From a virus: 23,142 nucleotides of DNA. Position numbers and translations under genes: made by a program. The notes under the pieces were generated by a model that was not told the DNA's origin, searched no databases, and worked only from the letters and a program-made list of their open reading frames with translations. The DNA is taken from positions 1-23,142 of IMG/VR virus record IMGVR_UViG_3300044621_001157; one strand, written 5' to 3'. Shown here in pieces: positions 9,840 to 23,142 of the stretch (the first letter of the stretch is position 1; every line of letters begins with the position of its first letter).

Positions 9840-12800
9840 ATGAGCTTTAACGGTTCCGGCACATTTCTCATCAACTCAACGGGTCAGCCCGTTGTTGCCA
9901 ACACCGTCATTTCGGCGACGGTTTTCAACGCCCTGACGGCAGACCTTGCCTCGGGCTTAACGAACTGCATCACCAAGGACGGTCAGTCCACGCCCACGGC
10001 CAACATCCCGATGGGCAGCAACAAGATCACCGGCCTTGCCAACGGTACGCTGATCGGGGATGCCGCCAACCTCGGGCAAGTGCAGTCCACCGTCGCCAAG
10101 CTCATCTCTATCACCGGCACAGATACCGTTGTCGGCACGATGTCGCCCACCCTGACCGCCTACGCTGCGGGTCAGTTGTTCTATTTCATCGCCTCGGGTG
10201 CCAACACGGGCGCGGTGACGCTGAACGTGGACGGCTTGGGCGCAAAGGCCATCACCCGCGACGGCAGCACGGCGCTGGCCGCTGGCGACATCAACTCGGG
10301 CGAGATTGTCGTTGTGATTTACGACGGCACCCGCTTCCAGATGATCAATGCCGCCAACTCGTTTGGCAACACGACGATCAACGGCACCCTGACGGTCACG
10401 GGCAACACCGGCCTGCAAGCCAATGTGTCGGTCACCTCGGCGCTATCAGTCGGCGGCACGTTTGCCGTCACGGGCGCTGCAACGCTCGGTAGCACCCTCG
10501 CGGTTACGGGCAAGTCAGACCTACCCACCGTCTCTACCGCCTCCGCAAACGCGGCTGTAGCGGTTATAACGGATTTGAGTGCAGCCGGTGCGTCCATCAC
10601 CTCGGCCAACGTCGGCACAGCGGTTGTCACCACGGGTACTGTCACCAATTTGACGGCAACGAGCGCCTCGGTCGCCTCCGTCAATGCGGGTGTCGCTTTG
10701 TTGACGACCGCTACCGTCACGAATTTGACGGCAACCGGCGCATCTATCGCCTCGGCTAACCTTGGCAATGCCGTTATCTCGGCGCTGACCCTGACGGGCG
10801 TATCGGTTGCCTCGGCCAACGTGGGCGTGGCGAACATCACCGACCTTCGCGCTGTCGGCGCATCGGTTACGTCGGCCAACCTTGGAACGGCTGTTGTCAC
10901 CAACGGCACCGTCACCAATCTGACCGCCACTAGCGCCTCGGTTGCCTCGGTCAACGCTGCGGTGGCTCTCGTCACGACGGGAACGGTCACGAACCTGACC
11001 AGTACCGCCGCCTCGGTAGCCTCTGCGAACGTCGGCACGGCTGTCATTACAACGCTGACCGCCACGGGTGCGTCTATCGCCTCGGCCAATGCGGGTAACG
11101 TACAGGCCACCATCGCCTCGGTCGGCTCGGCTAACCTTGGCACGGCGGTCATCACGACCGGAACGCTGACGAACCTTACGGCCACCTCGGCATCGGTCGC
11201 ATCAGTCAACGCTGGTGTGGCACTTGTCACCACAGGCACGGTCACGAACCTGACGAGTACGGCAGCCTCTATTGCCTCGGCCAACATCGGCGTGGCAGCT
11301 ATCGGCTCGTTGTCGTTTACCGGCGCGTCTATTGCCTCGCTAAACGCGGGTGTTGCCAATATCACCGATTTGCGTGTGGCGGGAGCGTCTGTCACCTCGG
11401 CCAACCTTGGTACAGCGGTCATCACCACCGGCAACCTCACGTTCTCCAGCACCGCCCAGCGCATTACGGGCGACTTTAGCAACGCGACGTTAAGCAATCG
11501 CTTGGCGTTTCAAACCAGCACTACTAACGGAAATACAATCGTTGGCGCATTTCCAAATGGAACCGGAAGTAATGCAAGGTTGCAAGCATTTTCAACGAGC
11601 GATCCTACTAACGCCTCAACCATAAGTTTTGAGGCAAACGGCGCAATATCTCAATCCGCAATTACAGCCGACAAAACAGGCACCGGCACCTACCTCCCGC
11701 TGACCTTCTACACCGGAGGCAGCGAGAGGATGCGGCTAGATACAGCCGGTCAGTTGGGCCTTGGTGTAGTGCCTAGCGCATGGGCAAGCGGCAATCGTTT
11801 TATAGATATTAACAACTCGGCTTCTTTTGGCGCGTTTGGCGGCACAGACTCCATGATGCTTGCCAATGCGTATTGGAACGGAAGCAATTGGGTTCGCAAA
11901 AACGCTAACAACGCTTTCCGCATGGTTATGGAGTCTACGAGCGGCACCCCGTCGTGGACTTTCCAATACGCCGCAAACAGCACCGCTGGCAGCACGATTT
12001 CGTGGTCGGAAGCGATGCGTATTGATACCTCCGGCAACGTCGGGATCGGCGGGACGGCGGGTACAAATACTAAAACTCAAATATCAGGAAGTTTCCCGGT
12101 TGCAAGCGGAAACGCTAACTCAAATGGTTTAACAAACAATTTGGAAGTGCCAAGCGCAATTACTGGCAGCGCGCACTATTTCCGTTGTGTTCCATCAATC
12201 GCTGCGTCTACCGCCACCTCAAATGTGCTTGGGTTTTGGGCGCAAAATGCGACTTTGGGCGCAGGGGCTTCATTAACTAATCAATATGGATTTGTTGTAG
12301 ACCCGCTTACAAGTGGCACCAACAACTACGGCTTCTACTCCGACATCGCCTCTGGCTCTAACCGCTGGAACTTCTATGCAGCGGGGACGGCGCAGAATTA
12401 TTTTGCTGGTGATACGGGCGTTGGTCGCGCACCTGTCAGCACGGTAAGGCTTACTGTACGCGGCCCGGGCACAACAAGCGGTGGCTATAGCATCATTTGT
12501 TACAACTCAAGTGATGCCGTTGAGTTTTATGCTAGAGATGACGGTCTTATTAGCACTGGAGCACTTGCAAATTCTCCATACAATTTTACGACTGGCTCTG
12601 CGGCTAATATGTATGTGGATTCTAATGGCTTGCTTTATCGCTCAACCTCATCGCTTCGTTACAAATCTGATGTTGCAAACGCCACGCATGGCCTTGCTGA
12701 TGTGCTTAAACTTCGCAGCGTAACGTACAAGGCCAAAAACAGCGGCGACACCGTATTCGGCGGATTGATTGCTGAAGAAGTGCATGACGCTGGTTTGACC

Positions 12801-12923
12801 GAGTTTGTGGCTTACGACAAGGAAGGCCGACCGGATGCTATCCACTACGGAAACATGGTGGCTTTGCTCGTCAAGGCTGTGCAAGAACTGACAGCGCGTG
12901 TCGCTGAACTGGAGGCTAAATAA
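9840..12923 (+). CDS. tail fibre with S74 intramolecular chaperone
   Basis: The ATG at 9840 has AGGAG seven bases upstream. Residues ~1-170 form a conserved virion-attachment type region (NIPMGSNKITGLANGT followed by a beta-rich domain). Residues ~234-534 are about 14 short repeats of the type ASVASANVGVANIT, expected to form an elongated trimeric beta fibre. Residues ~545-935 contain repeated fibre motifs (ERMRLDTAGQLGLG, AMRIDTSGNVGIG) typical of phage receptor-binding shafts. The C-terminal ~90 residues are a peptidase S74 chaperone with Ser937 and Lys942 at the correct spacing, GGLIAEEVHDAG, and a terminal coiled coil. The chaperone trimerises the fibre and is then autocleaved. Base composition appears to drop near 11.5, 12.1 and 12.5 kb, suggesting mosaic exchange in the receptor-binding part. 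Confidence 0.9.
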   Translation: MSFNGSGTFLINSTGQPVVANTVISATVFNALTADLASGLTNCITKDGQSTPTANIPMGSNKITGLANGTLIGDAANLGQVQSTVAKLISITGTDTVVGTMSPTLTAYAAGQLFYFIASGANTGAVTLNVDGLGAKAITRDGSTALAAGDINSGEIVVVIYDGTRFQMINAANSFGNTTINGTLTVTGNTGLQANVSVTSALSVGGTFAVTGAATLGSTLAVTGKSDLPTVSTASANAAVAVITDLSAAGASITSANVGTAVVTTGTVTNLTATSASVASVNAGVALLTTATVTNLTATGASIASANLGNAVISALTLTGVSVASANVGVANITDLRAVGASVTSANLGTAVVTNGTVTNLTATSASVASVNAAVALVTTGTVTNLTSTAASVASANVGTAVITTLTATGASIASANAGNVQATIASVGSANLGTAVITTGTLTNLTATSASVASVNAGVALVTTGTVTNLTSTAASIASANIGVAAIGSLSFTGASIASLNAGVANITDLRVAGASVTSANLGTAVITTGNLTFSSTAQRITGDFSNATLSNRLAFQTSTTNGNTIVGAFPNGTGSNARLQAFSTSDPTNASTISFEANGAISQSAITADKTGTGTYLPLTFYTGGSERMRLDTAGQLGLGVVPSAWASGNRFIDINNSASFGAFGGTDSMMLANAYWNGSNWVRKNANNAFRMVMESTSGTPSWTFQYAANSTAGSTISWSEAMRIDTSGNVGIGGTAGTNTKTQISGSFPVASGNANSNGLTNNLEVPSAITGSAHYFRCVPSIAASTATSNVLGFWAQNATLGAGASLTNQYGFVVDPLTSGTNNYGFYSDIASGSNRWNFYAAGTAQNYFAGDTGVGRAPVSTVRLTVRGPGTTSGGYSIICYNSSDAVEFYARDDGLISTGALANSPYNFTTGSAANMYVDSNGLLYRSTSSLRYKSDVANATHGLADVLKLRSVTYKAKNSGDTVFGGLIAEEVHDAGLTEFVAYDKEGRPDAIHYGNMVALLVKAVQELTARVAELEAK
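10540..11440 (+). repeat. array of ~14 short repeats in the tail fibre
   Basis: The segment encodes about 14 units of roughly 17-25 residues built on the pattern ASxASxNxGxAxxT, often linked by TNLTATS or TDLRAVG. Pairs of neighbouring units recur in the same order (AVVTTGTV, TNLTATSASVASVNAG, VALVTTGTV, TNLTSTAAS), so whole blocks as well as single units have been duplicated. One unit, near 11110-11150, lacks its linker and looks like an internal deletion. Synonymous differences between copies are frequent. Confidence 0.85.
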
Positions 12924-15213: not shown

Positions 15214-15320
15214 ATATCCCGCCCTCCGCGTGAGCAGCGCCAGTTTGGATATGGCACAGAGCGCCATTCTCGGTCACGGTTAGCCTTGAGTTTACGCCAT
15301 AGGTCAATAAGCCATCTCAT
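15207..15320 (-). CDS. 37-aa basic Trp-rich peptide
   Basis: This short frame is supported by an ATGA overlap with the upstream gene (15320-15317) and by GGAGG at 15332-15328, seven bases before the ATG. The product begins RWLIDLWRKLKANRDREW and contains PYPNWRCSRGGRD, so it has four or more Trp and many Arg/Lys residues. The N terminus could be an amphipathic helix. I recall similar tiny phage peptides but no function. It overlaps the next gene by seven bases. Confidence 0.55.
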   Translation of the reverse strand: MRWLIDLWRKLKANRDREWRSVPYPNWRCSRGGRDIW

Positions 15321-15868
15321 GGCAAAGCCTCCACGCTGTAGTTGCTTGAGGGTGACTTCCAGCCTCGAGGGACTTCCCCTCGAATATGCGACGGATCTAC
15401 CCACAACAAGCGATTGTTCGGGTATGCGATCCATTGGCCAGAATCTAACGCGATGATGTGATGGTCTTTGCTCTGGTCGGGGATCTCTGACCATCCACCG
15501 TTGGCCCAGAACACCGAAAACTGGTACACGCCAGGACGCTGGACGCCATCGCGCCCGATCGCCTTCACGCGGTGGTTACGCAGGAACTGCATTTCGCGCA
15601 CTTCGCAGAGCCGGCTGAAGCTGTCCCACCACACGCAGACGTTAAGCGGCAGCGGGTCGCAGGGCTTGGAGCAGATCGCGTGTATGGGCATCCTGGCCCA
15701 CATAGCACCACACTCAAGCATGACGCTGAACATGGGGACGCGCATTGGCTCGGCTCTGAAGCCTAGGACGGTGGCCAGCGTGAAATCGCCGTGGCCCTGC
15801 TCTTGGTCATATAGGAATTCGTTTCGGACGTAAGCCGTGACATACGGCGTATCTACCATAAAGCTCAT
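15317..15868 (-). CDS. conserved phage hypothetical protein (183 aa)
   Basis: The gene begins with an ATGA overlap with the DUF1364 gene and ends with an ATGA overlap with the 37-codon gene. The product starts MSFMVDTPYVTAYVRNEFLYD and includes the blocks MLECGAMWARMPIHAICSKP, CVWWDSFSR, EMQFLRNHRVKA and NNRLLWVDPS. Proteins with this block order recur in environmental tailed phages in early-gene clusters, but I know of no function. It contains several Cys and Trp residues, is soluble and lacks an obvious catalytic motif. Context with recombination and nuclease genes suggests an early role. Confidence 0.75.
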   Translation of the reverse strand: MSFMVDTPYVTAYVRNEFLYDQEQGHGDFTLATVLGFRAEPMRVPMFSVMLECGAMWARMPIHAICSKPCDPLPLNVCVWWDSFSRLCEVREMQFLRNHRVKAIGRDGVQRPGVYQFSVFWANGGWSEIPDQSKDHHIIALDSGQWIAYPNNRLLWVDPSHIRGEVPRGWKSPSSNYSVEALP

Positions 15869-16714: not shown

Positions 16715-17128
16715 TTAATCCTCAACGTGAATCGGCTCGGGTAACGGGCCAATTCCCATCTCAATGCACTTGTTCTCGATGCCGTACAGGTACTCGGTGA
16801 ATTCTTGCTTGGTCATGCGGGATGTTCGTTTTAAGGGCCGCAGACGCTTTCTGCCAAACCCTTCTATCGTCTCCCACCCCCAGATTTCACCCAAGAAAAA
16901 GTCGTGTAGATCGTCTCGAGTGAAGCCTCTTAAGCTCTCGCCCGCCGCCTCCATGATCATGGGATAGACCACCCCAAAGAGATACCGCGACTGCTGATTG
17001 GTTTTCGGTTTTTTCCACTCGGTTACTTCAATTGACCACACACGGGCAGGGTCTAACCCTTGCGTCATGCGCGTTACGGCAACCGCTATTTGCTCTGGCG
17101 TCGTGCCTTTAGGAAATATGCGCTTCAT
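16715..17128 (-). CDS. ninB: NinB-like recombination mediator
   Basis: The start is placed at ATG 17128, which forms an ATGA overlap with the PP-loop gene; this gives 137 residues, close to NinB/Orf length (~146). Diagnostic stretches are WKKPKTNQQSRYLFGVVYPMI (the NinB-type S/N-x-x-Q-N-x-x-L/Y core), FLGEIWGW and KRTSRMTKQEFTEYLYGIENKCIEMGI. Lambda Orf (NinB) binds ssDNA and SSB and replaces RecFOR in phage recombination. Here it lies downstream of ERF and an SSB-like gene, a consistent recombination set. A three-base gap separates it from the next gene. Confidence 0.75.
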   Translation of the reverse strand: MKRIFPKGTTPEQIAVAVTRMTQGLDPARVWSIEVTEWKKPKTNQQSRYLFGVVYPMIMEAAGESLRGFTRDDLHDFFLGEIWGWETIEGFGRKRLRPLKRTSRMTKQEFTEYLYGIENKCIEMGIGPLPEPIHVED

Positions 17129-17913
17129 ACTCCGCACATCCCTTCGCATTCATTGTTAAACATATCCACCTGCCCGTGGTCTGCCGCTGTGGATAAGTCA
17201 ACTTGGTCAAGCGGAACGCAGGATCGGTGCATGAACTGTTGCCCGCGCATCCCCGGTTGCTGGCGTATCGCGGCGTCCACCTCTAGCGCGTCTGCCCATG
17301 CCTCTGTGTCGGCCTTAATTGCCCGCCATTCGTGATCGCTGTGAAACGGACAGCCAATGCAACTGGACTTTGGCGGTAGCGGGTAACCTTTGCGTTCCAT
17401 CCACGCCAAACAATCCGACCGGCTCATGCTTTTCTCAATAAGCGGCCAGCGGTGACGCTTCCACGCCTCTTTAGCCGGTTTCATTCGTAACGCTTCGTCG
17501 GTGCTAATGCCAATCAACATTTCGCACAACACCCCTTTTGCGCGTTGCCCCGGCTTTAAGTCAAGCAACTCGCGTGTTTTGCGGGTCAATGGTTGAATTT
17601 TGTATTCCATCGTACATTGCCGCCGACCCATAGCCCGATCCCCGCTCGGCATGATTATGTGCCACGGCACAGCAGCAACCCGTATGCCCTGCTGTTTGTT
17701 AAGGATGTCTTGCCGCAAGTTACCGTGCTGCACTCGGTACACCGGAAACGGCAGTTGCTTTTCTAACCAATCCAACCACTCGTACACCTTGCGCGGTTCC
17801 CAGCCCGTGTTGGCAAAAATGGCAGCTTCCACAGGTTCTATTTCGCCATGTGCAATCATCAACGCCAATGTTGAGGACTGAACCCCCGCGCCAAGTGATA
17901 AAAAGCGTTTCAC
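17125..17913 (-). CDS. PP-loop ATPase, PAPS-reductase family
   Basis: The 262-residue product begins with SLGAGVQSSTLALM (residues 6-19), a PP-loop that binds ATP and adenylates or activates a substrate in the adenine nucleotide alpha-hydrolase superfamily. Cysteines at 100 (RRQC), 185 and 188 (CIGC), and 256 and 260 (CEGMC) could bind a metal or Fe-S cluster, as in thiolation enzymes, or form disulfides. Phages often carry such PAPS-reductase-like genes and the substrate is generally unknown; sulfate reduction, base or tRNA thiolation and DNA modification are all possible. The GTG start overlaps the glycosyltransferase stop (GTGA, 17913-17910) and the stop overlaps NinB's start (ATGA). Confidence 0.82.
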   Translation of the reverse strand: MKRFLSLGAGVQSSTLALMIAHGEIEPVEAAIFANTGWEPRKVYEWLDWLEKQLPFPVYRVQHGNLRQDILNKQQGIRVAAVPWHIIMPSGDRAMGRRQCTMEYKIQPLTRKTRELLDLKPGQRAKGVLCEMLIGISTDEALRMKPAKEAWKRHRWPLIEKSMSRSDCLAWMERKGYPLPPKSSCIGCPFHSDHEWRAIKADTEAWADALEVDAAIRQQPGMRGQQFMHRSCVPLDQVDLSTAADHGQVDMFNNECEGMCGV

Positions 17914-18596
17914 CGGCTCGCCTCAAGCCATTCGCGGCCATACTCGACATCTTGCCAATCCTTGAACCACGGGCCACCGCGGGTGAAATGCACGGCGAGC
18001 GGGTTCGGGCATTGGTCGCGGGTATGCCAGCCCTCAAGATAGTTCCAGCTAATCGGCAGCTCACCTATCACATCGTCGGTCAGCCACTCAAAACGGTGCA
18101 GATACATTCCCGATCGACGGTTCACCACCTCGGGCGTCAGAGCCTTGACTTGCTCATGCCCGCAGTTGATAAACATAAAGCTCGACCAGTTTTTACGGGG
18201 GTAGAGAGTTTGTACCTGACCATCCATCTTCATGGTTTCGGTAGGCCGATAATCGTGTTTTACAAGAAAGGCCGCCTTGGCTCCGTCGACGTAATCCAAT
18301 ACCCCGGCGATGTCGCCGCGGAACAAGAAATCACAGTCAACGAAAACGGCCCACCCGTTGTATCCGGCGAGATACGGCGTCAGGAACCGCGTAAAACTAA
18401 ACTCGGTAGACGAGAACGGATCAAACTCCCGCCAGTAAAGGTTATGTTCCCGAAGCTCTGACTGTTTGATCGGCTGAATGTCCACCGGGATGGAGGCGTG
18501 ACGCAAGATTGACTTGCGACACACCTGATAGGCGATGTCCTCGCGGCTATCCCACCCGATAAACACCCGCAGGTCAGAAAGGGGTGTCCAGGTCAT
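17910..18596 (-). CDS. GT8-like glycosyltransferase
   Basis: The start is taken at ATG 18596 (228 residues), preceded by a GGGGA site; a longer frame would run deep into the upstream gene. VFIGWDSRED near the N terminus, FTRFLTPYLAGYNGWAVFVD and the DCD triad (87-89) match the nucleotide-sugar and metal-binding DxD of GT-A fold family 8 enzymes. LAVHFTRGGPW near the C terminus resembles the GT8 H-x-x-G-x-x-x-W block. The enzyme would transfer a sugar from a nucleotide sugar; LPS, a protein or modified DNA could be the acceptor. It shares a GTGA overlap with the PP-loop gene, suggesting linked expression and possibly linked function. Confidence 0.75.
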   Translation of the reverse strand: MTWTPLSDLRVFIGWDSREDIAYQVCRKSILRHASIPVDIQPIKQSELREHNLYWREFDPFSSTEFSFTRFLTPYLAGYNGWAVFVDCDFLFRGDIAGVLDYVDGAKAAFLVKHDYRPTETMKMDGQVQTLYPRKNWSSFMFINCGHEQVKALTPEVVNRRSGMYLHRFEWLTDDVIGELPISWNYLEGWHTRDQCPNPLAVHFTRGGPWFKDWQDVEYGREWLEASR

Positions 18597-18861
18597 CCCA
18601 ATTCCCCTCGTTGATTTCTGGCTTCTTGGTGGCCTGGCGCTGCGGCTCACCACCGCGGGAGAGCTTGCCCTCGCCCTTTGGCTCAAACTTCAAGCTCATG
18701 TACCGATCACCGCTTTTCTGGCTCGTCTTGATCCACGCGGAGATGTTGAAATCTACGTTGTCGATCACGCATGAGCCGCGGTAGTCGGGGCGCTTGGGGT
18801 TGTCACCTTTGGCGTTATTCTTGAACAGGACGCCTTTTTGGTTCGGGTCATAATCAGGCAC
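18574..18861 (-). CDS. small SSB-like protein beside ERF
   Basis: The 95-residue product starts at GTG 18861 with AAGGAG seven bases upstream. It has KGVLFKNNAKGDNPKRPDYRGSC followed by FNISAWIKTSQKSGDRYMSLKFEP, resembling short phage/DUF736-like proteins with an OB-type strand order. It ends in a Gln/Lys/Arg-rich linker and an acidic tip DDLDTPF. That tip resembles the C-terminal DDDIPF tail by which bacterial SSB recruits partners. Position directly after the ERF annealing protein supports a single-stranded-DNA-binding role. The OB fold is an inference; the acidic tip is seen directly. It overlaps ERF by eight bases. Confidence 0.6.
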   Translation of the reverse strand: MPDYDPNQKGVLFKNNAKGDNPKRPDYRGSCVIDNVDFNISAWIKTSQKSGDRYMSLKFEPKGEGKLSRGGEPQRQATKKPEINEGNWDDLDTPF

Positions 18862-19549
18862 GGTTTTGCTCCTTGGCTATTTGAATGTATTTCTTGATGG
18901 CAGACCGTTCCTTGGCCGTCATGGCGTCGGCGACGGCGATATACAGGTCGTGGTCGGAATTGACGCGCTCATGGACGGCCAGCACCGCCAGGGCGATGTC
19001 TTTCTCCTCTGCGTCCAGGTCAAATGCCGCGCGAAACTCCTTCACAAGCTCGTCACGGCGCGCTGGGTCAAATTCTTTGCCTAGATCGCCTCGAGGATCA
19101 TTCGTAAAGGCGGGTTTGGCAGCCACTTCATGCGTCTGGGCGTCGGCGTCGTTATCGCCCTCGGTCGGGATGCAGAACGCTTGAAAGGCGGCGTACTTGT
19201 AAGCCGCAGACATGGCCTTATTGCTGGCCTTGTCGCCCGAGTCCATCGCCTCACCGATTGTGACCACGGTGTGCTTGCTGGCATCCTCGGCGGCTACAAA
19301 ATCAAACTCTACAGTCAGCGTGACGTAAAACAACGCCGTGCCTGCTCGGTTCTGACGTTCGATAACTTGCCGATCCTTGACGCGCGGCAGGATGCAAAGG
19401 CCGTGCTTTGACAGCAGCGGCGACAGCGCACCATAAACCTGGTCAATACCGCGAAAAGCATAACCCTGCGAATGATTTTTGCTTTCTTTACTGATTCCGA
19501 TTTTGGACAGCTCGGCGGTAACCGCCGCAATCTTTTCATATACCTTCAT
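18854..19549 (-). CDS. erf: ERF-family single-strand annealing protein
   Basis: The 231-residue product matches ERF recombinases: SQGYAFRGIDQVYGALSPLLSKHGLCILP near the N terminus, a central TLTVEFDFVAAEDASKHTVV pair of strands, and GEAMDSGDKASNKAMSAAYKYAAFQAFCIPTEGDNDAD. The last is the ERF G-x-x-x-D-x-x-D-K-A-x-x-x-A-x-T/S-Y-A-x-(K/R) block. The C-terminal ~80 residues are a separate charged helical region. ERF proteins anneal complementary ssDNA in phage recombination and genome circularisation. AAAGGAG lies seven bases upstream of the ATG, and the gene overlaps the preceding 43-codon gene by 14 bases. Confidence 0.88.
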   Translation of the reverse strand: MKVYEKIAAVTAELSKIGISKESKNHSQGYAFRGIDQVYGALSPLLSKHGLCILPRVKDRQVIERQNRAGTALFYVTLTVEFDFVAAEDASKHTVVTIGEAMDSGDKASNKAMSAAYKYAAFQAFCIPTEGDNDADAQTHEVAAKPAFTNDPRGDLGKEFDPARRDELVKEFRAAFDLDAEEKDIALAVLAVHERVNSDHDLYIAVADAMTAKERSAIKKYIQIAKEQNRA

Positions 19550-19667
19550 CGTTGTTCTCCTTTAGCTCGTCTATTGCCTTGTTGCAGGCTTCAATACGTT
19601 CTTCTTCCTCACGCTGTTGCATCTCGAGATCCTGTTGATGCCACCAGGTCATATCGTCATCGTCCAT
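19536..19667 (-). CDS. 43-aa acidic coiled-coil peptide
   Basis: The start is set at ATG 19667 because AGGAG lies about ten bases upstream. The product opens with DDDDMTWWHQQDLEM and continues as a Glu-rich helix (QQREEEERIEACNKAIDELKEN shortened here to its character). No family is recognised. Frame support comes from its overlap with the 41-codon gene upstream (11 bases) and ERF downstream (14 bases). A DNA mimic or partner of the recombination proteins is possible only because of its charge and place. Confidence 0.5.
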   Translation of the reverse strand: MDDDDMTWWHQQDLEMQQREEEERIEACNKAIDELKENNDEGI

Positions 19668-19782
19668 GAGCTGCGCGCTCCTCTTGTGGGGTGCAGCCGC
19701 CGTCACCACAAGGGTCGTTAATGGCGGCAAGTGCAAACAAAATGATCAGACCGATAAATTGCGGCCAGGGTGAGCGGCTCAT
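19657..19782 (-). CDS. 41-aa single-TM peptide
   Basis: This short frame starts in an ATGA overlap (19782-19779) with the upstream gene. The product has a short polar N terminus, one hydrophobic segment (FIGLIILFALAAI, residues 9-21) and a polar tail with two Cys residues in a D-P-C-G-D-G-G-C setting. A small membrane protein, or one with a signal peptide, is likely. No typical lipobox is visible. Nothing indicates its role; early membrane peptides in phages can affect host exclusion or lysis, but this is speculation. Confidence 0.5.
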   Translation of the reverse strand: MSRSPWPQFIGLIILFALAAINDPCGDGGCTPQEERAAHGR

Positions 19783-20057
19783 CGTCCGTCATCCCACGGG
19801 CCGTTCTGCTCGGCATCGCGTGTGGCAATTTCCTCAAACTCAAAAATGGCATCTGCGCCAAGGTCGCAGATGTCTAACTTGATGTCGTGGTTGAGCGATG
19901 CGGCAACCTTGTCGTTGTCAAGGAAAATGCCGATCAGGTCGGCAGCCTCAAGGATGATGCCGCCATCTAGGTCTTGGGTGTACTCCACGCGCACCTCAAA
20001 CTTGTTGCCGAGGGCGTAGAACGTACCGAAACCGTGGAATGTGTCTTTGCGTGGCAT
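19779..20057 (-). CDS. 92-aa hypothetical, first gene of leftward operon
   Basis: The start is taken at ATG 20057 with AGGAG eight bases upstream; an upstream in-frame ATG at 20090 would leave almost no leader from the predicted promoter. The product is acidic: PRKDTFHGFGTFYALGNKFEVRVEYTQDL, then ILEAADLIGIFLDNDKVAASLNHDIKLDI and an EFEEIA segment, ending NGPWDDGR. It looks like a small beta/alpha protein without a catalytic motif. It is not a helix-turn-helix protein, so the leftward side of the switch does not begin with a second repressor. No family is recognised. Confidence 0.65.
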   Translation of the reverse strand: MPRKDTFHGFGTFYALGNKFEVRVEYTQDLDGGIILEAADLIGIFLDNDKVAASLNHDIKLDICDLGADAIFEFEEIATRDAEQNGPWDDGR

Positions 20058-20098
20058 ATCTATTGCTCCTGTCTGTGGTTTGTCAATCAACGAGGCAT

Positions 20099-20127
20099 AG
20101 GATAGTTACCTTGACAGGCCATGTCAA
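20099..20127 (-). promoter_or_regulatory. leftward sigma70-type promoter
   Basis: On the minus strand a perfect -35 TTGACA (20127-20122), a 17-bp spacer and TATCCT (20104-20099) form a sigma70-type promoter. The expected start near 20092 gives a leader of about 35 nt before the ATG at 20057, with AGGAG well placed. It should drive the whole 13-gene leftward operon and tRNA. Its -35 is the right arm of the operator palindrome. Confidence 0.8.
20111..20127. promoter_or_regulatory. palindromic operator TTGACA-5-TGTCAA
   Basis: The 17-bp element has perfect 6-bp arms TTGACA and TGTCAA around GGCCA. Each arm is the -35 box of one of the two divergent promoters. A dimeric helix-turn-helix protein, most simply the adjacent Cro-like protein, could bind here and block both promoters. 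This is the only perfect copy I found; one half-site-like copy lies at 21859-21872. Confidence 0.65.
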
Positions 20128-20139
20128 CCCCCCTATCCT
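20111..20139 (+). promoter_or_regulatory. rightward sigma70-type promoter
   Basis: On the plus strand TTGACA (20111-20116), a 17-bp spacer and TATCCT (20134-20139) mirror the leftward promoter exactly. The expected start, about seven bases after the -10, falls at 20145-20148, on or next to the ATG of the Cro-like gene. No Shine-Dalgarno is visible, so this message should be leaderless or nearly so. Confidence 0.8.
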
Positions 20140-20147
20140 TTCATCCC

Positions 20148-20309
20148 ATGAAACCGCAACAACTGATCAAGCAATACGGCTCCCAATACGCTGTTGCCAA
20201 GGCTTTCGGGGTTACTCGAGCAGCGGTACAGCAATGGGTCAAGGCAGGCAAAGTCCCTGACGCGAGACGTTGGCAGTACGAGGCGGGCAAAGTCGCCCGT
20301 CCCCGTTAA
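20148..20309 (+). CDS. Cro-like helix-turn-helix regulator
   Basis: The 53-residue product has QLIKQYGSQYAVAKAFGVTRAAVQQWVKAGKVP, a clear helix-turn-helix of the lambda Cro/YdaS type, followed by ARRWQYEAGK. This layout matches small Cro repressors that bind palindromic operators as dimers. I chose ATG 20148 because the predicted promoter would start transcription at or just before it; an in-frame ATG at 20121 lies inside the operator, upstream of the start point. The stop overlaps the methyltransferase start as TAATG. It probably represses its own promoter and the divergent one. No CI-type repressor is visible in the window. Confidence 0.88.
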   Translation: MKPQQLIKQYGSQYAVAKAFGVTRAAVQQWVKAGKVPDARRWQYEAGKVARPR

Positions 20310-21619
20310 TGCGTTACGGAAGCGTTTGCAGCGGCGTAGAGGCGGCTACCGTGGCGTGGCATCCGTTGGGATGGCAAGCCGCGTGGTACAGCGAGATAGA
20401 GCCTTTCCCGTCTGCCGTACTTAAACACCATTACCCCACCGTCCCCAATTATGGGGATATGACCCAATACGAGGCATGGCCTGATGAACCAATCAACCTT
20501 CTTGTGGGAGGAACCCCTTGCCAATCCTTCAGCGTCGCAGGACTGCGAAAAGGACTGGCAGACCCGCGTGGCAACCTCATGCTTACCTACGGTGCAATTG
20601 CTAAACGCTATCGCCCCGAGTGGTTGGTATGGGAGAACGTCCCCGGTGTCTTGTCGTCTAACGCAGGACGGGACTTTGGAACCTTCCTTGGAATGTTGGC
20701 AGAACTCGGGTATGGGTTCGCATACCGGGTTCTTGACGCTCAATACTTCGGAGTGGCCCAGCGCCGCCGTCGTGTGTTCGTTGTCGGACACCTTGGAAAC
20801 TGGCAACGTGCCGCAGCGGTTCTTTTTGAGCGCCACAGCCTGCAGGGGCATCCTGCGCCGAGCCGAGAAAAGGGGCAGGGAACTGCCGCCCACGTTGAGG
20901 GAGGCGTTGAATTGTGTGGCGCACTTTGCGCCAGAGACTACAAAGACCCTGGCACAGACGGAATAAACCGCAATTCAGCCAAAATGGTGCCAGTTGCAAT
21001 TCAAGCGACAATTATCGGTCGTGATGAAAATTCTGGCCCAAACGGAGTGGGTGCAGATACGTCTGGGGCAATGTTTACGTTAACAAAAACCGATGTTCAT
21101 GGCGTAGCACAACCAATGGCTTTTCCTTGGCAATCAGCTCTTGACCCTATAGGGAAGCCAGAAAACCTTTCTGGCACGTTAATCAAAAATCAGACAATGG
21201 CGGTTGCTCAACCGATCCCATATGACTTTTTCCAAATTACTTCCCCTGTGAACCGTCAATCACGGGAATCAGGCGATCCGTGCCACACCCTTGCGCGTGA
21301 CAACGCCGCACACGCCACCATTGTTCAGCCGACAGCATCAGCAGAAACGGCAGGCACATTACGAGCAAATGCTGGCAGCGGTTTTCGCAGCAATGGGACG
21401 CCGGTAGAAGGCGTGGCAATTCAAGCAATGCAAGTGCGCCGCCTCACACCCATTGAGTGCGAACGCCTACAAGGTTTCCCAGACGGTTACACCAACATTC
21501 CTTGGCGTAACAAGGCAGAGTCACCTGACGGCTCACGCTACAAGGCAATGGGCAATAGTATGGCTGTGCCGGTGATGCGTTGGATCGGTGAGCGTATTGC
21601 TGCGGTAGAGGCGTTATGA
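20309..21619 (+). CDS. DNA (cytosine-5) methyltransferase
   Basis: The start is ATG 20309, overlapping the Cro-like stop (TAATG). The 436-residue product transfers a methyl group from SAM to cytosine C5. Motif I is SVCSGVEAATVAW (residues 5-17), motif IV PCQS with catalytic Cys71, motif VI ENV (109-111), and motif VIII QRRRR (151-155). Motif IX is RRLTPIECERLQGFPDGYT near residue 380 and motif X contains GNSMAVPV. Between motifs VIII and IX about 200 residues hold the target-recognition region, longer than in a minimal Dcm, with repeated blocks such as GALCARDYKDPG and AGTLRANAGSGFRSNG common in phage enzymes. No restriction partner is adjacent, so it is a solitary enzyme, probably for anti-restriction. 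Confidence 0.93.
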   Translation: MRYGSVCSGVEAATVAWHPLGWQAAWYSEIEPFPSAVLKHHYPTVPNYGDMTQYEAWPDEPINLLVGGTPCQSFSVAGLRKGLADPRGNLMLTYGAIAKRYRPEWLVWENVPGVLSSNAGRDFGTFLGMLAELGYGFAYRVLDAQYFGVAQRRRRVFVVGHLGNWQRAAAVLFERHSLQGHPAPSREKGQGTAAHVEGGVELCGALCARDYKDPGTDGINRNSAKMVPVAIQATIIGRDENSGPNGVGADTSGAMFTLTKTDVHGVAQPMAFPWQSALDPIGKPENLSGTLIKNQTMAVAQPIPYDFFQITSPVNRQSRESGDPCHTLARDNAAHATIVQPTASAETAGTLRANAGSGFRSNGTPVEGVAIQAMQVRRLTPIECERLQGFPDGYTNIPWRNKAESPDGSRYKAMGNSMAVPVMRWIGERIAAVEAL

Positions 21620-22017
21620 GCCGCACCGCCTATCACCGTGCCTATTATTGGTCGCGTATAAGCGAGCGCCGTGCGTCTGCAAGGGCTTCACGGCGTAAGG
21701 CAAGGGAGAGGGCAGCGGTCATTAAGATCGTCTGTCAGGCCGTAGATGACGCTAGAAACGAAAAACCCCCGGTTAGCGGGGGCTTGACGCGGCAGGGGGG
21801 CTGCCTTACGCTAGATTTGCGGATTAAGCGTGATGGAAGTGTGACTGACTGTCCTAGTCATGTCAACCACCCCACCACGCCCAACAGCTCGGGTACTCTG
21901 GTCGGGGAAACAACGCACAGAGCCACCTTAAACCTAAATCGGGGCAGCCAGCCTTTAGGTGCGCGGCGTATTGTCGGGAAGCGCAAATGGCAACCGGAGC
22001 AATCCGGTGAAAAGTAG
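21616..22017 (+). CDS. doubtful basic ORF after the methyltransferase (133 aa)
   Basis: The frame begins in an ATGA overlap with the methyltransferase stop. The first ~45 residues are strongly basic (SERRASARASRRKARERA) and look like a genuine small protein. The rest crosses a terminator-like hairpin at 21766-21782 (encoding PPVSGG), a candidate promoter and a candidate structured RNA. It reads like translated non-coding sequence, rich in Thr, Ser, Pro and Asn without clear structure. Either only the N-terminal part was once a gene or the RNA features overlap a coding region. No family is recognised. Confidence 0.4.
   Translation: MSRTAYHRAYYWSRISERRASARASRRKARERAAVIKIVCQAVDDARNEKPPVSGGLTRQGGCLTLDLRIKRDGSVTDCPSHVNHPTTPNSSGTLVGETTHRATLNLNRGSQPLGARRIVGKRKWQPEQSGEK
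21761..21782 (-). terminator. rho-independent terminator-like hairpin, best on minus strand
   Basis: CCCCCG (21766-21771) pairs with CGGGGG (21777-21782) around a 5-nt loop. On the minus strand the stem is followed by TTTTTCGTTTC (from AAAAA at 21761-21765), a good intrinsic terminator. On the plus strand only two T residues follow, so it would be weak. It would stop leftward transcription coming from the right edge before it runs into the methyltransferase. Confidence 0.7.
21784..21812 (+). promoter_or_regulatory. candidate sigma70-type promoter for the 22-kb genes
   Basis: TTGACG (21784-21789), a 17-bp spacer and TACGCT (21807-21812) fit a moderate sigma70-type promoter directly after the terminator hairpin. 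The spacer contains an inverted repeat GGCAG/CTGCC, a possible operator. The expected start near 21819 would give a leader of about 320 nt before the gene at 22141. The -10 is poor (T, A and final T match). Confidence 0.45.
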
Positions 22018-22035
22018 CCGACAGCAGGGTGGCTC
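21920..22035 (+). ncRNA. candidate structured leader RNA (three-way junction)
   Basis: Four mutually compatible helices can be drawn by eye. P1 is a 10-bp stem with one G-U pair, 21920-21929 with 22026-22035. P2 is ACCTAAA (21932-21938) with TTTAGGT (21954-21960). P3 is TGTCGG (21972-21977) with CCGACA (22018-22023), plus a flanking U-G. P4 is ACCGGA (21993-21998) with TCCGGT (22003-22008) closed by a GCAA (GNRA) loop. P4 sits inside P3; P2 and P3 sit inside P1. A purine-rich internal loop separates P3 and P4. It matches no riboswitch or ribozyme class I can recall. Such folds can arise by chance, so this is a candidate only. Confidence 0.35.
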
Positions 22036-22037
22036 CG

Positions 22038-22112
22038 TCAGTCATCTAATCTCTGCACGATCCACGTTAGGCGTACTCCGTCTCAACCGTGCAGAGTTCA
22101 CCATCAGTCATC
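22038..22112. repeat. inverted repeat flanked by direct repeats
   Basis: CTCTGCACG (22051-22059) and CGTGCAGAG (22088-22096) form perfect 9-bp arms around a 28-nt loop. TCAGTCATC occurs as direct copies outside the arms at 22038-22046 and 22104-22112. The element lies directly upstream of the gene at 22141 and downstream of the candidate structured RNA. It could be an operator, an RNA hairpin in the leader, or part of a replication origin; nothing in the sequence decides among these. Confidence 0.6.
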
Positions 22113-22140
22113 AGTTCTAAACCATAGAGAGGTTATGTAT

Positions 22141-22467
22141 ATGGGTGATTTACACCAGTATTTTCCGACTAAAACTAAATCAGAAGAACCTAAACCTAGT
22201 CACAACCTAGAACATCACATCCACCGTAATGCCGCGGTGTGGAATGAACTCGTACAACAATCCCCGCTGAACCGTTTACGCTTCTACGACGCCCAACTTG
22301 CTCGAGGCATTGAGGTTAATAAAGACCGAGTGGCCGAACTGATCCGTGAGGTTGGCCCGGCTGCTGTGCTGTCGGATCGAGATGTCATTGGCCTGGTGCG
22401 CCAGTTGTGGGGTGAACGAGCTGTGGAGAGACTGCGTGAACGTGCCGGCATTAAAACGGGGAAATAG
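22141..22467 (+). CDS. hypothetical protein (108 aa)
   Basis: I chose ATG 22141 because GAGAGG (22127-22132) lies eight bases upstream; the in-frame ATG at 22135 is only two bases from it. The product has a polar N terminus (GDLHQYFPTKTKSEEPKPS), a segment HHIHRNAAVWNELVQQSPLNRLRFYDAQLARG, and a C-terminal helical half (VAELIREVGPAAVLSDRDVIGLVRQLWG then ERAVERLRERAG). It looks soluble and helical. No family is recognised. Position before a VRR-NUC nuclease suggests an early or replication role. Confidence 0.65.
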   Translation: MGDLHQYFPTKTKSEEPKPSHNLEHHIHRNAAVWNELVQQSPLNRLRFYDAQLARGIEVNKDRVAELIREVGPAAVLSDRDVIGLVRQLWGERAVERLRERAGIKTGK

Positions 22468-22470
22468 GAC

Positions 22471-22518
22471 ATGGTGGATTATCTGGCTGGGTCGCTGCAT
22501 CAACGAGGCTCGAGATGA
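22471..22518 (+). CDS. 15-codon mini-ORF coupling two genes
   Basis: ATG 22471 opens a 15-residue frame (VDYLAGSLHQRGSR) that ends in an ATGA overlap with the VRR-NUC gene start at 22515. GGGG lies upstream of its ATG. It may serve as a translational-coupling leader, or be chance; it fills the only gap between the two genes. Confidence 0.25.
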   Translation: MVDYLAGSLHQRGSR

Positions 22519-22835
22519 GATACCGAGCCAGGAGAGACGCGAACGATGGAGTCATTGGCCAGGCGCTGTCCCTAGCCGGGTTCGACGTCCTAGACTTCGC
22601 CTCAAACGGCGGCGTACCCGATCGGCTCGTCGTCAGGTTGCTGCCGGACGGAACGCCTTGGGTGTGCTGGGTCGAAATCAAAGTCGAAAAAGGAAAGCTA
22701 CGCCCGAGCCAGGAGCGATTCCGGCAAGTGTTTGAACCCCGCGGGGAGTTTTACGTTGCTCGAGATCCCGAGGCTACGGTGCGCGAGTTGATGGAGCGAT
22801 ACCTGGCTGCAATTAAGCCGGAGCAGCTCCGTTGA
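22515..22835 (+). CDS. VRR-NUC domain nuclease
   Basis: The ATG has GAGG six bases upstream. The 106-residue product is a stand-alone VRR-NUC (PD-(D/E)XK) nuclease. GVPD (residues 33-36) gives the PD, WVEIK gives Glu54-x-Lys56, and KGKLRPSQERFRQVF with Gln66 is the characteristic following helix. A small strand (FYVARDPEAT) and terminal helix complete the fold. Size is typical of phage copies, which are proposed to act as structure-specific nucleases in replication or recombination. Its 3' end overlaps the convergent minus-strand gene by 23 bases. Confidence 0.88.
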   Translation: MRYRARRDANDGVIGQALSLAGFDVLDFASNGGVPDRLVVRLLPDGTPWVCWVEIKVEKGKLRPSQERFRQVFEPRGEFYVARDPEATVRELMERYLAAIKPEQLR

Positions 22836-23142
22836 GCATTAAAGCCTTACGGGCGCCCTTGTAATGGACAATGGCAGGGTCAGGGTGTTGCTCGAGAAAC
22901 TCCGGCAGGCAGGCATAGTACGATTCTGGGAGGTGTTGCACAGGGACACGCTTGGCGTACTCCCGCAGCACTTCCTGGTCGCCGTACCACACGCGAAACT
23001 TATCCGGCAGGACGTTATACATCTCGGCAAGGTCAGCCCACACGCCCCAATCAGCCGTAATCGTGCAGCAGCCGACGTAAGGGTAGATCTCATCGAGGGT
23101 CTTGCCGGTGTATTCGCTAAAGTCCTGGCCGCGCTGCTGCGG
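22813..23142 (-). CDS. glycosyltransferase-like protein, C-terminal part
   Basis: The minus-strand frame is open from its stop at 22813 to the right edge, so the N terminus is missing; the GTG at 23043 is probably internal. Reading back from the edge the visible residues include FSEYTGKTLDEIYPYVG, TITADWGVWADLAEMYN, and FRVWYGDQEVLREYA. The W-Y-G-D-Q step and the final VHYKGARKALML resemble the D-Q and H-(F/Y)-x-G-x-x-K blocks at the end of GT8-like enzymes. If so, it is the second glycosyltransferase of the window. The assignment rests on two short motifs and is uncertain. Confidence 0.5.
   Translation of the reverse strand, partial: PQQRGQDFSEYTGKTLDEIYPYVGCCTITADWGVWADLAEMYNVLPDKFRVWYGDQEVLREYAKRVPVQHLPESYYACLPEFLEQHPDPAIVHYKGARKALMLNGAAPA

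What the first reader, a model, noticed from the sequence alone, without database searches (positions are those of the whole stretch)
20099..20139. Symmetric switch: two mutually exclusive promoters built on one palindrome
The 41-bp segment is a near mirror image: AGGATA, 6 bp, TTGACA, 5 bp, TGTCAA, 6 bp, TATCCT. Read on either strand it gives TTGACA, 17 bp, TATCCT. The arms of the central palindrome are themselves the two -35 boxes, so polymerase cannot occupy both promoters, and a dimer on the palindrome would block both. Unlike lambda-type switches there are no separate operators and no visible second repressor; the leftward operon starts with a non-HTH gene. The identical -10 boxes mean any bias must come from initiation, translation or another factor. 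This may be a minimal early-gene switch of an unusual kind.
Basis: partly seen in the sequence, partly recalled or inferred. Interest (0 to 1): 0.82.

Follow-up and report, generated by a model that had tools for sequence, protein, structure and literature searches.

The report
Mirrored early promoters of lytic phages
One 41-base mirror-image stretch carries both early promoters of a family of probably lytic phages, overlapping so that only one can be read at a time; a small Cro-type repressor, probably translated from an mRNA with no leader, most likely sits on two operators inside the stretch and shuts both promoters off together.

Summary
It is not chance. The mirror layout occurs in 55 of 62 related sequences (window included), and the two hexamer pairs are the best conserved bases between the genes. 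In complete or near-complete ~35.5 kb relatives this site is the only strong sigma70-like promoter pair, or nearly so. Left operon: recombination genes. Right operon: cro, then a methyltransferase or an O-like replication gene. The central palindrome is probably not the repressor site: its spacing varies 4-6 bp under nearly identical Cro proteins, while both outer 6-bp gaps keep their length. A sister clade, and the measured PY54 and phiKO2 operators, point to two 16-bp sites, 20100-20115 and 20123-20138; each would cover one promoter's -10 and the other's -35. Binding and transcription starts are untested. I rate it a new variant of a known kind.

The parts
20099..20139 (.). 41-bp mirror element: two interleaved, oppositely directed sigma70-type promoters
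   Evidence: mirror in 55 of 62 related sequences
20111..20139 (+). right early promoter P_R: TTGACA-17-TATCCT, predicted +1 at or next to A20148
   Evidence: -10 always 6-8 nt before the cro ATG in relatives
20099..20127 (-). left early promoter P_L: TTGACA-17-TATCCT, predicted +1 at G20091 (start of conserved GTTGA)
   Evidence: GTTGA 6-7 nt after the -10 in 37 of 37 distinct relatives
20100..20115 (.). candidate Cro operator O_L, GGATAG-TTAC-CTTGAC (covers P_L -10 and most of P_R -35)
   Evidence: inferred: same register as the 16-bp palindromes of the sister clade; best match in the region to the PY54 operator, 9/12
20123..20138 (.). candidate Cro operator O_R, GTCAAC-CCCC-CTATCC (covers P_R -10 and most of P_L -35)
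   Evidence: inferred: second best match, 8/12
20148..20309 (+). cro: 53-aa P22_Cro-family repressor, predicted leaderless mRNA
   Evidence: PF14549, 42.7 bits, cut-off 30.2; no Shine-Dalgarno in 37 of 37 distinct upstream regions
19779..20057 (-). first gene of the left operon, 92 aa, no family match; SD AGGAG; differs between relatives
18854..19549 (-). ERF-type ssDNA annealing protein of the left operon
20309..21619 (+). C5 cytosine DNA methyltransferase, second gene of the right operon

Best explanation
This is the single early control region of a probably strictly lytic phage. Lambda's PL and PR appear fused into one interleaved pair of sigma70 promoters. On entry, host RNA polymerase can bind in either orientation but not both at once, because each promoter's -35 lies inside the other's -35/-10 span (17-bp overlap, predicted starts 57 bp apart), so polymerases share out left (recombination operon) and right (cro, DNA methyltransferase or replication initiator) transcription. 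The right mRNA starts at the cro AUG itself (leaderless); the left mRNA has a ~34-nt leader with a ribosome site. Cro then most likely binds two 16-bp operators, O_L (20100-20115) and O_R (20123-20138), 23 bp apart centre to centre. Each would cover the -10 of one promoter and the -35 of the other, so Cro on either should shut off both operons. Shown by sequence and comparison: the layout, its conservation, the leaderless geometry, gene content, and lack of detectable CI and integrase in the records searched. Inferred: transcription starts, polymerase exclusion, Cro binding and joint repression.
For: Exact mirror pair. Present in 55 of 62 related sequences, spacers always equal on both sides, 17/17 or 18/18. 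In 42 distinct sequences the four hexamers match the window at 94-99.6% of bases against 66% at the centre, 42% in the cro discriminator and 67% at third codon positions of cro. The pair are the only promoters of >=10/12 in the window and in 4 of 7 longer relatives (G002, G003, G005, G006); G001 and G007 have one more each; G004, of the shifted clade, keeps only the left one plus an unrelated match. No integrase, S24 repressor or serine recombinase in 16-17 records; the only HTH_3 matches listed are weak (13 of 16 records, all below the family cut-off) and, where compared, lie at cro. Operons: ERF, SSB, RecE-like exonuclease, NinB left; cro, MTase or O-like initiator right. Leaderless geometry in all relatives, no SD in 37/37; leaderless cro mRNA was mapped in PY54 of the same Cro class (PMC4488713). 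Operators: sister clade with another recognition helix has GTTTAG-N4-CTAAAC on each -10 (5-6/6 palindromic on the left, 4-5/6 on the right) in the same register; the measured PY54 and phiKO2 Cro sites are 16 bp, 6-N4-6 (PMC4488713, PMC4997575); in every N5 and N6 relative scanned O_L ranks first (tied in some) and O_R first or second (tied in some) as PY54-like sites. Centre length changed at least 3 times while outer gaps stayed 6 bp.
Against: No transcript, footprint or binding data. O_L and O_R are poor palindromes in the window's own clade (3/6 and 2/6 mirrored pairs), and their likeness to the PY54 site is partly built in, because that site resembles -10 and -35 hexamers; the p values of about 0.01-0.04 do not allow for this and are not significant in L046, L048 and L343. 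PY54 and phiKO2 Cro do not repress their own promoter. In the 4-bp-centre clade the right promoter has moved 9 bp, so the mirror is not indispensable. The 53-aa Cro is shorter than the dimeric N15 Cro and may dimerise weakly. Host sigma factor and host are unknown, and the window is a fragment of about 23 of 35.5 kb.
Confidence: 0.58

Rival explanations
1. One reading: one Cro dimer binds the central palindrome TTGACA-N5-TGTCAA, covering both -35 boxes at once.
For: The arms are almost invariant (98-99.6% of bases). The 4-bp-centre clade keeps TTTACA-N4-TGTCAA although its right promoter no longer uses the left arm. The only member lacking the left arm in the first set, L049, also has a changed recognition helix.
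Against: The spacing between arms is 4, 5 or 6 bp under nearly identical Cro proteins (L041 and L032 differ only at the C-terminal end), which a rigid dimer would not be expected to tolerate. Two divergent consensus -35 boxes make this palindrome without any operator. The sister clade has its palindromes on the -10s, not between the -35s.
Confidence: 0.2
2. A plain bidirectional promoter with no Cro operator inside it: the mirror serves only to share polymerase between two operons, and Cro acts elsewhere or on the host.
For: The same mirror layout occurs in unrelated phages without a Cro gene next to it, for example before T4-like gene 43 and gene 32 and between phi29-like gene 16 and a holin gene. 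PY54 Cro does not repress its own promoter (PMC4488713).
Against: The cro gene lies at the element in every relative, and the outer gaps are constant in length, which promoters alone do not need. The sister clade has clear 16-bp palindromes whose inner halves are in no promoter hexamer.
Confidence: 0.17
3. A bistable two-way switch: whichever promoter fires first keeps the other off, giving alternative infection programmes.
For: Overlapping divergent promoters make RNA polymerase itself a switch in plasmid pLS20 (PMC4207663).
Against: Both operons hold genes needed together in lytic growth; no second repressor or lysogeny gene was found; tested bidirectional promoters show little competition at basal strength (PMC12825309).
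Confidence: 0.05

Closest known systems
Telomere phages PY54, phiKO2 and N15: cI/cB - cro region
   Same: P22_Cro-type all-helical Cro next to divergent promoters; 16-bp 6-N4-6 operator (GTATAGCTGGCTATAC); leaderless cro mRNA mapped in PY54; the start contexts CCCCATGAAACC (N15) and CCCATGAAACC (window) are alike.
   Different: Those phages are temperate, with CI/CB to the left and an operator that represses only the repressor gene; here recombination genes lie to the left and no CI was found.
Phage lambda PL and PR with Cro
   Same: Left operon of recombination genes, right operon starting with cro and leading to a methyltransferase or replication gene; Cro as likely brake on both early operons.
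   Different: Lambda's PL and PR lie kilobases apart with three operators each (own knowledge); here they overlap by 17 bp with two candidate operators in all.
pLS20 Pc/Pr overlapping divergent promoters (PMC4207663)
   Same: Opposite promoters that one polymerase at a time can bind; regulator operator overlapping both.
   Different: Unequal promoters and DNA looping there; near-perfect mirror promoters here.
Bidirectional promoters of Warman and Grainger (PMC12825309)
   Same: Sequence symmetry drives divergent transcription with steric exclusion.
   Different: Theirs share a -10 element and starts are typically 10-23 bp apart; here the -35 boxes are nested in each other's spacers and the predicted starts are 57 bp apart.
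Pseudoalteromonas phages PHS21 and AL
   Same: Related Cro gene divergent from another operon (with an exonuclease gene in PHS21), overlapping predicted promoters and no CI annotated alongside.
   Different: Promoters nested in another geometry, not mirror-identical; not leaderless by position in PHS21.

Membership tests
P22_Cro / all-helical Cro (PF14549) | Profile match over the curated cut-off | tested here: met
   42.7 bits, cut-off 30.2; best solved relatives N15 Cro 2hin and P22 Cro 1rzs
P22_Cro / all-helical Cro (PF14549) | Binds a palindromic operator in its own intergenic region | not testable with these tools
   candidates only: O_L and O_R
N15/PY54-type Cro module | 16-bp operator of format 6-N4-6 | tested here: inconclusive
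   clear in the sister clade, weakly palindromic in the window's clade
N15/PY54-type Cro module | Leaderless cro mRNA | tested here: inconclusive
   geometry fits in all relatives (-10 6-8 nt before ATG, no SD); no transcript mapped
Lambda-type lysis/lysogeny switch | CI-type repressor divergent from cro | tested here: not met
   left gene has no HTH match; no S24 repressor, and no HTH_3 match over the cut-off, in the records searched
Lambda-type lysis/lysogeny switch | Integrase or other means of lysogeny | tested here: not met
   two records with 127-bp terminal repeats included
Bidirectional promoter sensu Warman/Grainger | Shared -10 element or starts about 10-23 bp apart | tested here: not met
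   predicted starts 57 bp apart; overlap is of -35 and spacer
Overlapping divergent promoters (pLS20 type) | Promoter spans physically overlap | tested here: met
   20111-20139 and 20127-20099 share 17 bp

The most novel reading that the evidence does not exclude
A fused PL/PR element in which each of two Cro operators covers the -10 of one promoter and the -35 of the other, so that one bound dimer silences a whole phage early programme in both directions; with a leaderless cro and no lysogeny genes, this would be about the smallest lambda-type early control known, perhaps derived from ordinary back-to-back promoters as still seen in the sister clade.
Probability: 0.4. Interest if true: 0.6.

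Novelty: new variant of a known kind. Interest (0 to 1): 0.47.

Why it matters
It gives a natural, well-conserved test case for how two polymerases share one site and how one repressor can silence both, without the extra parts of lambda. The clades with 4-, 5- and 6-bp centres and the sister clade with separate promoters form a ready series of natural mutants. It also suggests what Cro is for in phages that cannot make lysogens.

Tried and rejected
Central palindrome as the sole operator: weakened by centre lengths 4-6 bp. Prophage copies in bacterial genomes: only four weak, distant matches in Holophagaceae bins, so no host could be named. Whole-phage relatives among isolates: no DNA match for the tail gene tried and only remote tail-protein matches. 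ERF matches are spread over many phage groups and gave no close relative. Looking for 16-bp palindromes of 6-N4-6 format within the window's own clade found none that stood clear of chance as an operator common to all members. A mirror layout at L254 with a 9-bp centre served as control and was not pursued. Structure prediction was not run: a monomer model would not settle where Cro binds.

Full report
Observation. The 41 bases 20099-20139 read AGGATA-GTTACC-TTGACA-GGCCA-TGTCAA-CCCCCC-TATCCT, and both strands give TTGACA-17-TATCCT. A consensus scan of 17000-23142 finds exactly these two promoters. In Markov versions of the window the layout never appears (0 of 200). A scan of viral contigs finds it in 66 contigs with a 5-bp centre and 12 with a 6-bp centre, against one with a 9-bp centre, which would not make promoters.

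Surroundings. To the right, ATG 20148 starts a 53-aa protein of the P22_Cro family, followed by a C5 DNA methyltransferase; to the left lie a 92-aa protein without relatives, an ERF annealing protein, an SSB-like protein and NinB. The window is a fragment. Related records of 35-36 kb, two of them with 127-bp terminal repeats, were fetched; one of these (G003) shows a recombination operon on one side (ERF, RecE-like exonuclease, NinB) and cro followed by an O-like replication initiator, then packaging and structural genes, on the other. Searches of 16-17 related records found no tyrosine or serine integrase and no S24-type repressor. An HTH_3 search gave one weak match, below the family cut-off, in 13 of the 16 records; those I compared lie at the cro gene. 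The genome set of 84,980 bacterial and archaeal species holds only four weak matches to the Cro. All this fits a lytic phage, though absence from fragments is not proof.

Conservation. Sixty-four viral loci encode relatives of this Cro. Of the 62 sequences with enough upstream DNA (window included), 55 carry the mirror pair, with equal spacers on both sides, 17/17 or 18/18. Among 42 distinct sequences the four hexamers match the window at 94-99.6%, the centre at 66%, the cro discriminator at 42% and third codon positions of cro at 67%. L046-L048 carry TATCAT in both -10 boxes where most carry TATCCT; L063 carries it on the right only. The first gene of the left operon differs among relatives while the promoter element stays. 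In the window and in four of seven longer relatives (G002, G003, G005, G006) the pair are the only promoters scoring 10/12 or more; G001 and G007 have one more each; G004, from the clade whose right promoter has moved, keeps only the left one and one unrelated match.

Asymmetry. The right -10 ends 6-8 nt before the cro ATG in every relative, and none of 37 distinct upstream regions has a Shine-Dalgarno, so cro is probably leaderless. Leaderless cro mRNA was mapped by RACE in PY54, a phage with the same class of Cro (PMC4488713). The left transcript should start at the G of a conserved GTTGA, 6-7 nt after its -10 in 37 of 37, and has a leader of about 34 nt with AGGAG.

Where Cro binds. Against that, the centre is 4, 5 or 6 bp long in phages whose Cro proteins are nearly the same; on a cro tree the length changed at least three times, while the two outer 6-bp gaps never changed length where both -10s are in place. 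A wider search brought in a sister clade with another recognition helix (VTKGAVS; L049, L345-L348). There the promoters are ordinary back-to-back ones and two 16-bp sites GTTTAG-N4-CTAAAC are plain, one on each -10 (5-6 of 6 pairs on the left, 4-5 on the right). The inner halves of these sites belong to no promoter hexamer. The format, six bases, four, six, is that of the measured Cro operators of PY54 (GTATAGCTGGCTATAC; PMC4488713) and phiKO2 (TTATAGCTGGCTATAA; PMC4997575). In the same register the window has GGATAG-TTAC-CTTGAC (20100-20115) and GTCAAC-CCCC-CTATCC (20123-20138). Scored against the PY54 site, O_L ranks first (tied in some) and O_R first or second (tied in some) in all 17 window-clade sequences with a 5- or 6-bp centre that were scanned. 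Caveats: they are weak palindromes, and the PY54 site itself resembles promoter hexamers, so the shuffle p values flatter the match. If right, each operator covers the -10 of one promoter and the -35 of the other, so one dimer would silence both, and a rigid operator explains the constant outer gaps.

Mechanism. Most likely host polymerase fires left or right from this one place at the start of infection, one at a time because the spans share 17 bp; Cro accumulates and shuts both early operons. Precedents: polymerase exclusion at overlapping divergent promoters in pLS20 (PMC4207663), and bidirectional promoters, where competition matters only when one direction is strong (PMC12825309). Nothing here calls for two stable states.

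Comparison. It works like lambda PL and PR under Cro, fused into one element. By sequence the protein is a P22_Cro-family member nearest the N15 class. It fails the test for a lambda-type lysogeny switch. Mirror promoters as such are not unique: unrelated T4-like and phi29-like contigs show the same layout without a cro (these gene names are read from the protein sequences, not from a family search). The cultured phages PHS21 and AL have a related cro facing another operon with overlapping predicted promoters of another geometry. I rate it a new variant of a known kind.

Noticed in passing
L187 7400-7440, L216 10517-10557, L106 1381-1421, L193 8472-8512: The same mirror promoter layout occurs in unrelated phages: between gp46 and gp43 (DNA polymerase) and before gp32 of T4-like marine phages, where the reverse promoter would give antisense RNA into the upstream gene, and between a phi29-like gene 16 and a holin gene.
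   Followed up: partly
20087-20091 and relatives: The predicted left transcript begins with GUUGA in all 37 distinct relatives, often GUUGACA followed by CAAC just before the ribosome site; a third TTGACA copy whose role is unexplained.
   Followed up: partly
L271 1444-1477: Pseudoalteromonas phage PHS21 has a related cro facing a recombination operon, with predicted promoters nested so that the -35 of one lies against the -10 of the other.
   Followed up: partly
19779-20057: The first gene of the left operon is swapped for unrelated genes in relatives while the promoter element and leader stay the same.
   Followed up: partly
L057-L062, upstream of cro: In the 4-bp-centre clade the right promoter has moved 9 bp and uses TTGTCA; a single TTGTCAA then serves as -35 for both directions.
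   Followed up: partly
9840-12923: Tail-fibre-like protein with many degenerate repeats of the type TSASVASVNAGVALVTTGTVTNLT.
   Followed up: no
15317-15868: The homologue of this protein in relative G003 matches a PHROG annotated as ferredoxin (phrog_3704).
   Followed up: no
1334-2911: Strong match to phrog_5107, labelled amidase, among tail genes; the label looks doubtful.
   Followed up: no
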